From: Haloarcula halobia
GTDB lineage: Archaea; Halobacteriota; Halobacteria; Halobacteriales; Haloarculaceae
DNA: 64,000 nucleotides
Assembly: GCF_029338255.1 (NCBI RefSeq)
Contig: NZ_CP119787.1
Location: 248,001-312,000, forward strand
Direction: 5' to 3'
Under the pieces are notes generated by a model. It did not search any database. It saw nothing but the letters and a program-made list of their open reading frames with translations, and had not been told where the DNA came from. Shown one piece after another: positions 25,814 to 30,370 of the stretch (its first letter is position 1; each line of letters starts with the position of its first letter). Position numbers and translations under genes: made by a program.

Positions 25814-26875
25814 TCAGTACCCCATCCCGAACCGGCGTTCGCGCAACTCGGGTGTGATCTGGATGCGCTCGACCGACTGGCCCGTCCGGTACCAGACGAA
25901 CGCCGCGCGCGTGAACAGTTCCCGGCAGTCGATGCGGACCTCGCGGGGGTTGCCTTCGGTGTGCTCGTGGATGTCCTCGATGGCCGCCCGGGTGAACAGG
26001 TCCGGCGCCTCACCCTGGTAGGGTTCGTCCCGGAAGTACGCGAACGACCGGGCGATGTACTCCGCGATGTCGTCGGGGCTGAACGGGTCGATGTTCTCGT
26101 AGTAGCGCAGGCGGGAGTCGAGCGTCCCGCGTATCTCGGCGACCCGTCGCTTGCCCTCGGGGGTCCCGGTCAGGAACAGGCGGACTCCGGCATCCCCGGC
26201 CACCTGCAGCGGCGACAGGAGGTCCACCTCGAGGACCTCTATCTCGTCGACGACGAGCAACAGCGTCTTGTCGTCCTGTCGGATGCGGCGCATCACCTCG
26301 TGGACGGCCGCCTTGGTGTCGGCGGTGGCCCACGGGATCCCGTTGCGGACCTGCGAGTAGTTCGACGGGTCGATGGAGTAGCCCGCCCCGTACGCCGCCG
26401 TCAGCACCGTCCGGTAGAGCTGGCGGGCGGTCGTCTCGCGGGGATTGTCCAGGTGCGTGACGATGAAGTCGTCGTGTTTCGAGAGGTCACGCAGGACGAT
26501 CTCGCGGAACGCCGACTTCCCGGTCCCGTAGGGGCTCACCAGCCCGATGTGCTGGTCCTGCAGGAGCCAGGAGGTGACCTGGTTCAGCATCTCCGTGTCG
26601 TGGCGGACGTAGAGCGGTTCCGGCATGTGGTCGAGTCCCGCCTCCTCGGTGAACGGGAGGTCGGTGACGTCCTCGATGTCGCCCCCGAGCGCCTCGCCGA
26701 AGGCGAGCAGCCGCTCTTCGACCTCCTGTAACTGGTCGAGCAGGACGCCCTCGGAGGGTGCTTCCGAGCGCGCTCGCTCGCCGGCACGGACCTCCTCGAG
26801 TCGGTCCATCACCTCGTCGACGGTCTGGCCGGCCTCGCCGTCGGTCCCCGCTGGGCCGTCGGAATCGTCAGACAC
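25814..26875 (-). CDS. AAA+ ATPase (Orc1/Cdc6-like fold), unknown role
   Basis: A 353-residue P-loop ATPase. An acidic N-terminus (1-75) precedes the AAA+ core: Walker [11 protein letters not shown] (about 118-127), Walker [12 protein letters not shown], sensor-1 LFLTGTPEG, and a sensor-2/lid region [15 protein letters not shown]. The arrangement resembles STAND/Orc1-like AAA proteins, but there is no clear C-terminal winged helix. The TATA-like CATATAAC (26909-26916) upstream lies at the edge of the TnpB remnant, so the insertion may have come close to its promoter. Confidence 0.8.
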
Positions 26876-26942
26876 GGTTGTACTCCAGCGTAGTTGACCG
26901 CCTGCAGCGTTATATGTTACGGAGAATCAAGGAGAAAGCCCC

Positions 26943-27926
26943 TCCGAGCCTGTCATAGAAAGCTTCGCACACTCTGCCCGTCCAAGCCTTGGTACGATCA
27001 CGTTCAAGCAGAAAGGCTTCAAACTCGACACCGAGCACAACCGCGTCCGACTCTCCAAAGGCTCGAACCTCAAAGAGTATTGGTCGGACTTCATCCTCTG
27101 CGAGTACCAGACTCGTCCCGATGTTGACCTCTCCACCGTGGAGAACGTCCAACAAGTTCGGGCGGTTTGGACCGGTGTCGAATGGGAGCTACACTTCGTC
27201 TGCAAAGTCGAAATCGAAGTGTCAGAGGAACCCGGTAACAAAACCGTTGGTGTTGACCTCGGCATCAACAATTTCGCCGCCCTCGCCTACGAAGACGGGC
27301 ACAGCGAACTGTACCCGTTGAACTGCTTGAAACAGGATGACTACTACTTCAGCAAACGCATCGCCCAGTGTGACGACTCGACTTCCGAGCAAGCCACGCG
27401 GTTGAACCAGAAAAAATCGACTCGCCGCACTCATTACTTCCACGCGCTCTCGAAACACATCGTTCAGCGGTGTGTTGGTGAGGGGATTGGAACCATTGTG
27501 GTAGGTGACCTCTCCGGTATCCGTGAGGACGAGGAGAACGATGAGTCGAAGTATTGGGGAAAGCACGGCAACCTCGACCTGCATTCGTGGGCGTTCGACC
27601 GCTTCACCGACCTACTCGAATACAAGGCCGAAATGGAAGGTATCACGGTCGAACAAGTGTCCGAGCGGGATACCTCGAAGTCGTGTTCGTGTTGTGGTCG
27701 GGAGCGTGACGCGAACCGTGTTGAACGGGGGTTGTACGTCTATGATGAGTGCGACTTGGTAGCGAACGCGGACGTGAACGGTGCTGAGAACATACGACAG
27801 AAAGTATCTCCGAGTCTCGCCACGGATGGCGGTGATAGGAGTAACGGCTGGTTGGCACAGCCATCGACGTTCCTGTTCGACAAGGAAACTGGTGCGTTCG
27901 CACCTCAAGAAGAGGTCACGTCGTAA
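26943..27926 (+). pseudogene. tnpB: TnpB (RNA-guided nuclease family), N-terminally truncated
   Basis: The open frame matches TnpB from a mid-protein segment (GTITFKQKGFKLD...RLSKGSNLKEYWSDF) to the C-terminus; roughly the first 100 or more residues are missing and there is no in-frame ATG until 27138. RuvC-I is GVDLGINNFA and RuvC-III is NADVNGAENI. At RuvC-II, where most TnpBs have Glu in an EDL motif, the sequence reads VVGDLSGIRE. The zinc ribbon is damaged: CSCC is present but the second pair reads YDEC instead of CxxC. Probably inactive as a nuclease. Confidence 0.82.
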
Positions 27927-27936
27927 ACCACAATAT

Positions 27937-27983
27937 CCCAACGGCGGTTGGGAATCCTCGCCCTCTAGGGCGGGGAGGATGTC
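27937..27983 (+). ncRNA. Omega-RNA (reRNA) 3' scaffold at the right end of the TnpB element
   Basis: Two hairpins directly downstream of the tnpB stop: CCCAAC-ggcg-GTTGGG and CCTCGCCC-tcta-GGGCGGGG (one T-G pair), ending at the element border GGATGTCAA. TnpB guide RNAs come from this part of IS605-family elements, with the guide taken from flanking DNA; the flank here is the end of the gene at 27991. Placement is by family knowledge, expression is not shown. Confidence 0.45.
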
Positions 27984-27990
27984 AAGCCGG

Positions 27991-28101
27991 TCAGGCCCAG
28001 TCTTCGAGGACGACGACGGCGGTGGTCGAGAGCCACTCGCCGTCGGCGTCGGTCCGCAAAATTGCCTTCTCGTCACGTTCCTCGTAGGTCACTTCACTCA
28101 T
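27991..28101 (-). CDS. Small acidic protein (36 aa), unknown
   Basis: Short frame MSEVTYEERDEKAILRT... ending VVLEDWA. Composition is typically haloarchaeal (12 of 36 residues D/E). A TATA-like CATATAG (about 28117-28123) lies 16-22 bases upstream of the ATG, consistent with a leaderless mRNA. The style (short, one beta-hairpin, aromatic end) matches conserved haloarchaeal micro-proteins, but I cannot name a family. The TnpB element ends about eight bases beyond the stop. Confidence 0.55.
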   Translation of the reverse strand: MSEVTYEERDEKAILRTDADGEWLSTTAVVVLEDWA

Positions 28102-28197: not shown

Positions 28198-28746
28198 TCA
28201 CCCGGTGAACTGGTGGTACTCCAGCTCCTTGTGTTTCATCTCGTTGTGCTTGCGCTCCAGGAACGAGTAGACCGAACCGTGGGGCGCGCCGTCGAGCAGC
28301 ATCTCGACGGCCTCCCGGACGGCGTCGACCTGTTCGGGGCCGCCGATGATAGAGAGCGTCGACCCGTAGATGACGACGGCCGCGCCGGACAGCTCCTGCA
28401 TCAGCTCGCGGGTGCGCCCGCCCTCGCCGATGAGTCGACCCTTGTGGCGCCGGAGGTCGTTCTTGTTGCGCGAGGCCGCCTCGATGTCGATGACCTCTAA
28501 CATCATCATGTCGTCTTCGAGCAGTGCCAGGGCGTCCTCCGGCGCGAACCCGCGGCCGATGGCCTTCACGATGTCCGGCCCCTTCAGCGCCGTCACGGGG
28601 TCGCCGACGGACTCGACTTTCACCGACCCGTCCTCGGAGTCGATGTCGAGACGCACCTCCGCTCGCTCCTCGATCTCGCGCATCGTCTCACCGCCCTCGC
28701 CGATGAGCACGCCGATGCGGTCCTGCGGAATCTTCACGTGTTGCAT
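28198..28746 (-). CDS. KH-domain RNA-binding protein (Dim2/Pno1-like)
   Basis: A 182-residue protein with two KH domains. KH1 has IGVLIGEGGETMREIEE (GxxG loop GEGG, about 12-15) and KH2 has HKGRLIGEGGRTRELMQ (about 105). Archaeal Dim2/Pno1 binds the 3' end of 16S rRNA during small-subunit maturation. In many archaea it clusters with eif1A and rio1; here those genes are upstream on the same strand but separated by the HTTM gene at 28838. A TATA-like TTTTAAAC (about 28777-28785) indicates its own promoter. Confidence 0.9.
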   Translation of the reverse strand: MQHVKIPQDRIGVLIGEGGETMREIEERAEVRLDIDSEDGSVKVESVGDPVTALKGPDIVKAIGRGFAPEDALALLEDDMMMLEVIDIEAASRNKNDLRRHKGRLIGEGGRTRELMQELSGAAVVIYGSTLSIIGGPEQVDAVREAVEMLLDGAPHGSVYSFLERKHNEMKHKELEYHQFTG

Positions 28747-28837
28747 AAGTATACGTCTCTGTAGGGCGCTCAGCCTGTTTAAAACTTCGGCGTCGGGACC
28801 GGGCGGTGTGGCGTCGGGCGATTTTGGCGGGCGCCGG

Positions 28838-30370
28838 CTATCGACCGCGCGCTCGGGCCTCACACCGGTGGCCGGCCAGCCGGGCGACGCCCTGCCTGAC
28901 CGTCCCCGTCTTCGTCGTCCGGAGCGTGACGTACTCGAGCTCGACGCGCTCGACGTCGACGGCGTGGTTCCGGTTCCACCGGCTGCAGTGATACGCCAGG
29001 AACAGGCGTCGCTCGTCGCCGTACCCGGGTTCGAGCAGGTTGCTCACGTACTTGCGCCAGCGCTGGTTGGGGTACTGGGCCGCCAGGTCGTCGGCCAGGG
29101 CGGGGGGTCGTTCCTCGGTGACCGGCCCGCCGCGGGCGACGTCGACGGTGGTCCCGTTCTCCAGGCGGCCGGGCAGGCGGTACCACCCCGTCTCGCGCAG
29201 GGGGTCCGGCGCGAACATCGTCCAGTGCTGGGTCAGCGACGCCGTCTCGCCGTAGGTCTCGAGCGGTTCGGGCACCGTGTCCTGCGGGCCGACGTCGGCC
29301 CGGTTCGTCAACACCTGAACGTTGTAGAGGCCGACGAACAGCACCGAGACCACGATGACGACCGCGGCGAGGACCCGGAGCCCCCGGCGCACGCTGTCGA
29401 ACCGCTCGTGGGGCGCGGCCGTCGGATACAGCCCGCGCGCCAGCGCAGTCGCGCCGGTGGTCCGTAGCCGCGCTCGGCCACGCTCGACCCGGGCGGCCGG
29501 AAGCAGGCGGTCCCAGACCGTCGGCGGGAGAAAGAGGAGCAACGTCGTGACGACCACGAGCGGGAACAGGCCCAGGTGCATCGAGAGGGCCATCCCGACG
29601 TGCATCGCCACGAACGCCGCCGCGAGCGCGGCCCGCTTCCACCCGGTCAGCAGGACCAGGCCGGGCGAGAAGGTCCACAGCACGTACACCGCGTACCCGA
29701 GCGCCGTCGTTACCAGCGGGAGCGTGCTCAGCAGCTCGCCGAACGGCGTCGTGAAGTGGCCCAGCTGGAGGGCGTAGGTCAGGCCGTCGCCCGCCCGCCA
29801 GACGACGCCCATGTGCTTGAGCGCGACGTTGGTGCCGTACATGAACACGACCTGGCCGAGCAGCGCGGCGGTCCCCATCGAATGGACCGTCTCGGGCGGG
29901 GCCTCGCGGTGGAGGGCGTCGACGGAGAAGCGCGCCCCGAGGGGGACGAACAGCGACCAGAACAGCGACATGCGCAGGAGGGTGTCGCCGCCGTTGAGCA
30001 CCAGCGGGAAGCGAGCGTGCAGGGAGAGCCAGAGCACCCACGTCAGCAGCGTCGCCAGCCGGGTCCGGTAGCCGACGAGGAAGCAGACGGCCACGAGCGC
30101 CTGGAGGGCAAAGAGGGCGGCGAGTGCCGGCCCGTCGCCCACGGCCAGGTGCACCGAGAGCGGGTCGTAGAGGCGAATCGCGGCCGGCCGCGGGAACACC
30201 CCGCCGTCGCTGTAGTGTGCCCCCAGGTCACGCGCTCGCAGGAGGACGTCGAGGACGAGCAGCGTCCCGAGAAGGATGCGAAAGACGCCCAGCGCCCGCG
30301 CGTCGACGGCGACCCGTTCGCGGATGCCGGCCCGGACCCCCGACGGGAGGTGGCGTCGCCACGTGGCCAT
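28838..30370 (-). CDS. HTTM-domain membrane protein (vitamin K-dependent carboxylase-like)
   Basis: A 510-residue polytopic membrane protein. The first 300 residues have about eight hydrophobic helices with the HTTM signature: LGVFRILLGTLLVLDVLLR, FFLVGYRTRLATLL-type loop and LLRMSLFWSLFVPLGARFS. Residues 370-510 form a soluble C-terminal domain (WTMFAPDPLRETGWYRLPG ... HCSRWNRNH). Homologous domains occur in gamma-glutamyl carboxylase and in many bacterial proteins of unknown role. Inserted between rio1 and the KH gene. GC and codon use match the surroundings. Confidence 0.85.
   Translation of the reverse strand: MATWRRHLPSGVRAGIRERVAVDARALGVFRILLGTLLVLDVLLRARDLGAHYSDGGVFPRPAAIRLYDPLSVHLAVGDGPALAALFALQALVAVCFLVGYRTRLATLLTWVLWLSLHARFPLVLNGGDTLLRMSLFWSLFVPLGARFSVDALHREAPPETVHSMGTAALLGQVVFMYGTNVALKHMGVVWRAGDGLTYALQLGHFTTPFGELLSTLPLVTTALGYAVYVLWTFSPGLVLLTGWKRAALAAAFVAMHVGMALSMHLGLFPLVVVTTLLLFLPPTVWDRLLPAARVERGRARLRTTGATALARGLYPTAAPHERFDSVRRGLRVLAAVVIVVSVLFVGLYNVQVLTNRADVGPQDTVPEPLETYGETASLTQHWTMFAPDPLRETGWYRLPGRLENGTTVDVARGGPVTEERPPALADDLAAQYPNQRWRKYVSNLLEPGYGDERRLFLAYHCSRWNRNHAVDVERVELEYVTLRTTKTGTVRQGVARLAGHRCEARARGR

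What the first reader, a model, noticed from the sequence alone, without database searches (positions are those of the whole stretch)
26943..27983. TnpB remnant with damaged zinc ribbon and an atypical RuvC-II site
The N-terminal part is deleted, the last Cys pair of the zinc ribbon reads YDEC, and at RuvC-II the usual Glu-Asp-Leu is Gly-Asp-Leu. I recall GDL in other members of this haloarchaeal subgroup, so loss of the canonical Glu may be a group trait. That would make the subgroup interesting as nuclease-altered TnpB relatives, while this copy is simply decaying.
Basis: partly seen in the sequence, partly recalled or inferred. Interest (0 to 1): 0.5.

Follow-up and report, generated by a model that had tools for sequence, protein, structure and literature searches.

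The report
Decayed TnpB with relocated catalytic glutamate
This is a broken copy of a haloarchaeal jumping-gene protein (TnpB); the active-site residue that looked lost appears to have moved to the position used by the related eukaryotic Fanzor nucleases, so the group is probably an ordinary working nuclease of a known kind and only this copy is damaged.

Summary
The feature is real. Window 26921-27985 is a solo-tnpB IS200/IS605-type (IS1341-like) element inserted directly after TTAC (26917-26920); the closest held relative has the empty site. The copy keeps its left end, right end and a full-length, high-scoring omega RNA (Rfam RF02656). It has lost the first ~116 codons, has no in-frame start before 27138, and departs at 1 of 101 near-invariant positions: the third zinc cysteine reads Tyr. 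Gly at the canonical RuvC-II Glu place is a group trait, but a Glu is not missing from the group. It sits six residues before the first zinc CxxC (27663-27665 here), the 'Ealt' position described for Fanzors and a D-phi-G TnpB clade (Yoon et al. 2023). In a first set of 137 aligned TnpBs, 108 have Gly at the canonical place and Glu at Ealt, 29 the reverse, and none lacks both; in a wider set of 218 the split is 160 and 56, with 2 others. An AlphaFold2 model of an intact member folds as a complete TnpB (Z 22.7 to ISDra2). So 'nuclease-altered subgroup' is not supported, 'this copy is decaying' is, and the type is already described. Catalysis and 3D distances in the active site were not tested.

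The parts
26917..26920 (+). TTAC target tetramer just outside the left end (TAM by inference)
   Evidence: Empty site GTTATATG-TTAC-GCCGGTCAG in the nearest relative L177; TTAC precedes the left-end motif in 51 of the 60 loci (of 80 searched) in which the motif was found
26921..26942 (+). surviving left end of the element
   Evidence: 26917-26942 is 26/26 identical to the left ends of L069 and L080
26943..26993 (.). 51-nt filler at the deletion junction; 26946-26961 (GAGCCTGTCATAGAAA) equals an end-repeat of a DDE-transposase IS type
   Evidence: No match in tnpB copies of the loci held at the settings; 11 places within 1 mismatch in the own genome, this one included, 0 for the reversed control; a DDE_Tnp_1 gene lies between two such repeats in L134
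26994..27926 (+). remnant of tnpB (residues 117-426 of the intact protein, then stop): part of WED, RuvC, TNB
   Evidence: 82-89% DNA identity to the relatives listed; PF01385 and PF07282; NF040570 guided_TnpB 158.3 bits
27255..27257 (+). RuvC-I Asp (DLG)
   Evidence: Equals D204 of L069, invariant in A1 and A2
27504..27506 (+). Gly at the canonical RuvC-II Glu place (GDL)
   Evidence: Aligned with the Glu of AsCas12f and, in the A2 profile, of a designed TnpB-like nuclease; Gly287 invariant in A1
27663..27665 (+). Alternative Glu (Ealt), six residues before the first zinc CxxC
   Evidence: equals E340 of L069, invariant in A1, at least 90% in A2
27741..27743 (+). Tyr in place of the third zinc Cys (YDEC)
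   Evidence: Only near-invariant departure, 1 of 101
27771..27773 (+). RuvC-III Asp
   Evidence: Equals D376 of L069, invariant in A1 and A2
27802..27976 (+). omega RNA / sotRNA region, overlapping the tnpB 3' end
   Evidence: Rfam RF02656 sot0042, 200.2 bits, model 1-174 of 174, gathering 88
27977..27985 (+). right end of the element (...GGATGTCAA)
   Evidence: Empty-site join; of 61 right ends found with a pattern ending in TGTCA, 61 have A next and then variable bases
27986..28005 (+). sequence in the guide place, i.e. the flank of the empty site (20 nt is a recalled guide length)
   Evidence: Continues the empty site of L177; no other TTAC-adjacent target in the own genome at up to 3 mismatches

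Best explanation
The window holds a dead copy of a solo-tnpB transposon. It entered an intergenic site right after TTAC, then lost its N-terminal part (116 of 426 residues), probably through insertion of a second IS and a deletion next to it, and picked up a Cys-to-Tyr change in the zinc ribbon. The subgroup it comes from is not glutamate-less: its RuvC triad is most likely Asp (DLG), Glu at the alternative place just before the zinc ribbon, and Asp (DxN). Intact members should therefore cut TTAC-flanked DNA under their omega RNA, as other TnpBs and Fanzors cut theirs. Shown here: the element's ends, the empty site, the deletion, the Cys loss, the reciprocal use of the two Glu places, and the TnpB fold of an intact member. 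Inferred: that Ealt is the metal ligand in this subgroup, that TTAC is the TAM, that intact members are active, and how the deletion arose.
For: Reciprocity: 108 of 137 distinct rows Gly/Glu, 29 of 137 Glu/(Pro 24, Ala 4, Ser 1), none with neither. In 218 rows including viral loci: 160 Gly/Glu, 56 Glu/non-Glu, 1 Ser/Glu, 1 Gly/Lys with a Glu one residue earlier. Spacing E-x6-C is exact in the window. The published expression for D{P}G + Ealt matches 67 of 70 rows from L067-L146 and 27 of 28 from L038-L066, and 0 of 29 canonical rows from L007-L036 (expression from PMC10711439). SpuFz1 E541, D383, N385 and D606 bind the metals (PMC10432273, passages). In the 426-aa model (pLDDT 79.4) strand 334-339 ends just before E340, strand 281-288 carries G287, strand 199-205 carries D204 near its end, and D376 lies at the start of helix 375-385; the 10-residue blocks with D204, G287, E340 and D376 have mean pLDDT 85-89. 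Fold: Z 22.7 to ISDra2 TnpB, 20.5 to mimivirus Fanzor2. Empty site. Omega RNA.
Against: No coordinates were available, so closeness of D204, E340 and D376 was not measured, and no activity was tested. On the tree there are only two independent contrasts between the Glu types, both reciprocal (sign test p 0.5). Some rows are odd: the own-genome copies such as L174 have two more residues between Glu and the ribbon and GHP, not GDL, and L285 has Lys at the column. PMC11423790 states the Glu-before-TNB place for Fz, TnpB and Cas12a alike (passage), which does not fit the Ecan/Ealt distinction of PMC10711439. The link of the filler to an IS rests on 16 nt.
Confidence: 0.92

Rival explanations
1. 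The subgroup has lost a working RuvC site and acts as an RNA-guided binder or repressor, as the TldR proteins do (TldR: only the listing of PMC13418256 seen; that TldRs lack the RuvC triad is recalled).
For: Gly at the canonical Glu place is invariant in 28 of 28 intact members.
Against: The two Asp and the Ealt Glu are invariant in those 28 too. Loss of function should scatter substitutions, not leave Glu at one alternative column in 108 of 108 Gly rows.
Confidence: 0.04
2. The remnant still has a role: its omega RNA is bound in trans by another TnpB of the genome and guards the empty site, or the frame from 27138 makes a useful fragment.
For: The omega RNA scores 200.2 bits, more than the intact copies L069 (194.6) and L067 (189.2). 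One relative with an unbroken long frame exists in the genome, L174, 56% identical. The coding part shows only one near-invariant change.
Against: The omega RNA of that relative scores differently (122.6 bits). The fragment lacks the first 116 residues. The empty target is not present elsewhere in the genome at up to 3 mismatches. Slow decay of a fairly recent copy explains the preservation equally well.
Confidence: 0.06
3. The Glu before the zinc ribbon is conserved for another reason, for example folding of the ribbon, and the subgroup uses a weaker two-Asp site.
For: Glu lies beside the ribbon; no 3D distance could be measured here.
Against: Most viral relatives whose ribbon is degenerate still have Glu at this column (0 of 68 viral rows match the expression that asks for the ribbon and Ealt), so it is not kept for the ribbon alone. 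E541 is a metal ligand in the solved SpuFz1 (PMC10432273).
Confidence: 0.04

Closest known systems
TnpBs with D-phi-G RuvC-I and alternative RuvC-II Glu (Ealt), Yoon et al. 2023, NAR (PMC10711439; passages and sections 10 and 23 read)
   Same: DLG at RuvC-I, Glu six residues before CxxC, Asp at RuvC-III; 94 of 98 rows of the two close haloarchaeal sets pass their expression
   Different: The main text does not hold words beginning with 'archaea' or 'halo', though their search included an archaeal protein set; the window copy is truncated and lacks one zinc Cys
Fanzor (SpuFz1 and others)
   Same: Position of the active-site Glu; fold (Z 20.5 to a mimivirus Fanzor2)
   Different: Fanzors carry DPG at RuvC-I; here DLG; host and transposon type differ
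ISDra2 TnpB (canonical, D191/E278/D361, PMC10097598, passages)
   Same: Whole fold of intact members (Z 22.7), TNB zinc ribbon in intact members, omega RNA at the 3' end
   Different: Canonical Glu replaced by Gly; Glu sits before the ribbon; no tnpA found beside the subgroup's copies
Haloarchaeal sotRNA / omega RNA elements (RF02656, RF02657; PMC12558985, passages)
   Same: RF02656 hit of 200.2 bits in the window
   Different: Nothing in kind

Membership tests
TnpB (IS200/IS605 accessory nuclease) | OrfB_IS605 and TNB domains, guided_TnpB model over cut-off | tested here: met
TnpB (IS200/IS605 accessory nuclease) | Full-length WED-REC-RuvC-TNB fold | tested here: not met
   The window copy lacks residues 1-116; met by the modelled intact member L069. 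The window copy is a remnant, not a working member
TnpB (IS200/IS605 accessory nuclease) | omega RNA at the 3' end, right end next to a variable guide | tested here: met
Ealt (D-phi-G) TnpB clade | D{P}G ... E-x6-CxxC ... CxxC ... D | tested here: met
   Met by 67 of 70 and 27 of 28 rows of the two close sets; the window itself passes only if Tyr is allowed for the third Cys
Ealt (D-phi-G) TnpB clade | Ealt rows form one clade apart from Ecan rows | tested here: inconclusive
   The quick tree of 73 rows needs 2 changes between Ealt and Ecan, 3 with L285 counted as its own class; holding all 54 Ealt rows together is not rejected, p-AU 0.49
Fanzor / pro-Fanzor | DPG at RuvC-I together with Ealt | tested here: not met
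   DLG in the window and D204-L-G206 in the group. The DPG expression matches 2 of 70 rows of L067-L146; L068 has a DPG upstream of its DLG and is probably one of them; the other was not inspected
TldR-like nuclease-dead TnpB | Loss of the RuvC triad (recalled) | tested here: not met
   D204, E340 and D376 invariant in 28 intact members
IS200/IS605 element with its own Y1 transposase | tnpA beside tnpB | tested here: not met
   0 of 80 loci L067-L146 within the flanks held (up to 3 kb) and 0 of 29 loci L038-L066, against 20 of 30 canonical loci L007-L036; a solo-tnpB (IS1341-like) element
RNA-guided DNA nuclease | Cuts TAM-flanked DNA under the omega RNA | not testable with these tools
   Needs an assay

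The most novel reading that the evidence does not exclude
A transposase-less haloarchaeal TnpB clade, found in about 90 of 146 genomes of the family by hand count, runs a Fanzor-type active site, and its decayed copies, which keep a complete omega RNA, still supply guides in trans to intact relatives.
Probability: 0.06. Interest if true: 0.45.

Novelty: new member of a known kind. Interest (0 to 1): 0.17.

Why it matters
It removes a false lead: haloarchaeal GDL TnpBs should not be listed as nuclease-dead because the canonical Glu is missing. It also points to a common archaeal set of Ealt enzymes with a likely TAM (TTAC) and defined ends, usable to compare the two active-site layouts (for example collateral cutting) outside eukaryotes. 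The copy itself is ordinary IS debris.

Tried and rejected
Rejected: catalytic loss in the subgroup. Rejected: plain 5' truncation; the left end survives. Rejected: sharing of right ends with the TnpA-bearing canonical elements; the 20 inspected run on from the stop codon through TAGTTCAC, the 6 readable subgroup ones through GGATGTCA. A first AlphaFold2 job on 28 close members was useless (pLDDT 37.0) and was not used; the second, with 68 diverse rows, gave 79.4. A 3D distance check of the triad was not possible: no coordinates are laid in the box. A viral scan with one distant member found only itself. tblastn of L069 in plasmids and phages gave 2525 and 357 records with a match; only their listings were looked at. 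The script stopped with an error after part of its output; its deviation count was redone. The left-end pattern was mistyped (3 of 80 found) and was replaced. The six-row alignment A3 misplaces the EDL of L260 and was used only for the window, L069 and L174. Rows dropped before counts: 24 of 170 matching frames shorter than 330 aa, then 9 duplicates, 50 of 268 (short or duplicate). One of the 15 TnpA loci (L295) entered the TnpA profile in a wrong frame. Print: of the paper searches, only one search used the word Ealt, and the only listed paper holding it was PMC10711439. Most subscription papers are not in the library, among them probably the 2023 PNAS survey of TnpB diversity that I recall, so I do not claim that the haloarchaeal case is unpublished.

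Full report
What is there. The stop-to-stop frame at 26898-27926 (+) encodes 342 residues with PF01385, PF07282 and NF040570 guided_TnpB matches. The flanking genes are an AAA-domain protein (25814-26875, -) and a KH-domain protein (28198-28863, -). The own genome has 7 matching stretches to this protein, itself included; the nearest others are 54-60% identical.

Element borders. Homology to relatives at the DNA level runs from about 26994 to 27985. A separate block, 26917-26942, is identical over 26 bases to the left end of several copies. In the closest same-genus genome (97% identical over the KH gene, 96% over 416 bases of left flank, 79% over the right intergenic flank) the place is empty and reads GTTATATG-TTAC-GCCGGTCAG. 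The insert is therefore 26921-27985, placed after TTAC. TTAC precedes the left-end motif in 51 of the 60 loci (of 80 searched) where the motif was found. Of 61 right ends found with a pattern ending in TGTCA, 61 have A next and variable bases after it; in two 64-65% identical relatives, L060 and L066, T follows TGTCA. No Y1 transposase lies in the held flanks of 80 of 80 loci L067-L146 or of 29 of 29 loci L038-L066; 20 of 30 loci of canonical family members have one.

How this copy is damaged. Against L069 the element is 413 bp shorter (1065 against 1478 nt). Residues 1-116 are missing, which takes the first strand (2-14) and the three helices within 17-95 of the model of L069. The junction holds 51 bases (26943-26993) without a match in tnpB copies. 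They contain, from 26946, GAGCCTGTCATAGAAA. That 16-mer occurs at 11 places within one mismatch in the genome, this one included (reversed control 0), and in L134 two such repeats flank a DDE_Tnp_1 gene. I read this as the end of another IS left by a deletion; that is an inference. Apart from the deletion, the copy departs at 1 of 101 near-invariant positions, the third zinc Cys; 52 of the 93 other rows compared depart as often or more. The rest of the frame is thus not visibly decayed, which bears on 'simply decaying': the decay is one deletion, one filler and one zinc mutation.

The RuvC-II question. At the canonical place the copy and its group have Gly. Alignments to solved chains put this Gly opposite the Glu of AsCas12f and, in the A2 profile, of a designed TnpB-like nuclease. 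The group has a Glu at E-x6-CxxC. In 137 distinct rows of at least 330 aa, 108 are Gly with Glu at this place and 29 are Glu with Pro (24), Ala (4) or Ser (1). In 218 rows with viral loci added, 160 are Gly/Glu, 56 are Glu/non-Glu, one is Ser/Glu and one is Gly/Lys. In 28 intact members D204, G287, E340 and D376 are invariant; in 68 diverse rows D204 and D376 are invariant and G287 and E340 are at 90% or more.

What is known. Yoon et al. 2023 (PMC10711439; passages and sections 10 and 23 read) call the two places Ecan and Ealt, define Ealt as the Glu six residues before the zinc motif, and report Ealt rows split into a D-phi-G and a DPG clade. In SpuFz1 the metals are bound by E541, D383, N385 and D606 (PMC10432273, passages). 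PMC11423790 (passages) describes the RuvC Glu as lying on the loop between the fifth strand and TNB, but says so of Fz, TnpB and Cas12a alike, so it does not help to tell the two layouts apart. The subgroup fits the D-phi-G Ealt part: their expression matches 67 of 70 and 27 of 28 rows of the two close haloarchaeal sets, 0 of 29 canonical ones, and 0 of 68 viral rows, most of which have a changed ribbon. It is not a Fanzor or pro-Fanzor, since RuvC-I is DLG.

Structure. The model of intact L069 (68-row alignment, pLDDT 79.4, pTM 0.64) matches AsCas12f 7wju (Z 26.3, rmsd 4.0, 356 aligned), ISDra2 TnpB 8exa (Z 22.7, rmsd 4.0, 318 aligned) and mimivirus Fanzor2 9b0l (Z 20.5, rmsd 4.2, 363 aligned). 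D204 lies at the end of strand 199-205, E340 follows strand 334-339, and D376 lies at the start of the last RuvC helix, as one would expect for a triad. Distances were not measured.

History of the swap. On a quick tree of 73 representatives (Glu columns left out) the two labels need 2 changes, 3 with L285 counted as its own class; one Ealt clade is not rejected (p-AU 0.49). Only two independent contrasts exist, both reciprocal, so the association cannot be significant on the tree alone. The case rests on the exact position and on published structures.

Spread. By my hand count of the table, about 90 of 146 genomes of the family have a match to this protein at E 1e-60 or better. The subgroup rows sampled from such matches that entered the alignment (from L038-L066) were all Gly/Glu.

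Verdict. The subgroup is a member of a published kind, and the copy is an ordinary remnant with a well-kept omega RNA.

Noticed in passing
L213-L288 (IMG/VR loci), rows: Most of these viral/phage TnpB relatives have Gly at the canonical place (often Gly-x-Asn), Glu before a Tyr-Thr-Ser-like motif at Ealt, and a changed or lost CxxC ribbon; 0 of 68 viral rows match the published Ealt expression. A minority (e.g. L243-L268 in part, L279, L283) are canonical.
   Followed up: partly
G000:C2:96340-97266 (L174), G000:C2:20741-21665 (L003), G000:C1:1930666-1931589 (L005/L160): The other subgroup members of the same genome have two extra residues between Ealt and the ribbon; L174 reads GHP, not GDL. 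The C2:20741 copy is split over two frames and the C1:1930666 copy has an in-frame TAG.
   Followed up: partly
G000:C1:2258477-2259226 (L006) with Y1 transposase at C1:2259583-2259930 (L304): A second, distant Ealt type (GDM ... NEYDTS) in the same genome does sit beside a Y1 transposase, so Ealt is not tied to solo tnpB.
   Followed up: partly
window 26946-26961: End-repeat-like 16-mer of a DDE-transposase IS at the deletion junction; 11 places within one mismatch in the genome, this one included.
   Followed up: partly
window 26910-26920 and L178, L181-L183, L185, L186, L189, L196: The insertion site TTATATGTTACGC is the same in these eight same-genus loci beside the AAA-protein gene, possibly its promoter, so the insertion may have struck a promoter region.
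   Followed up: no
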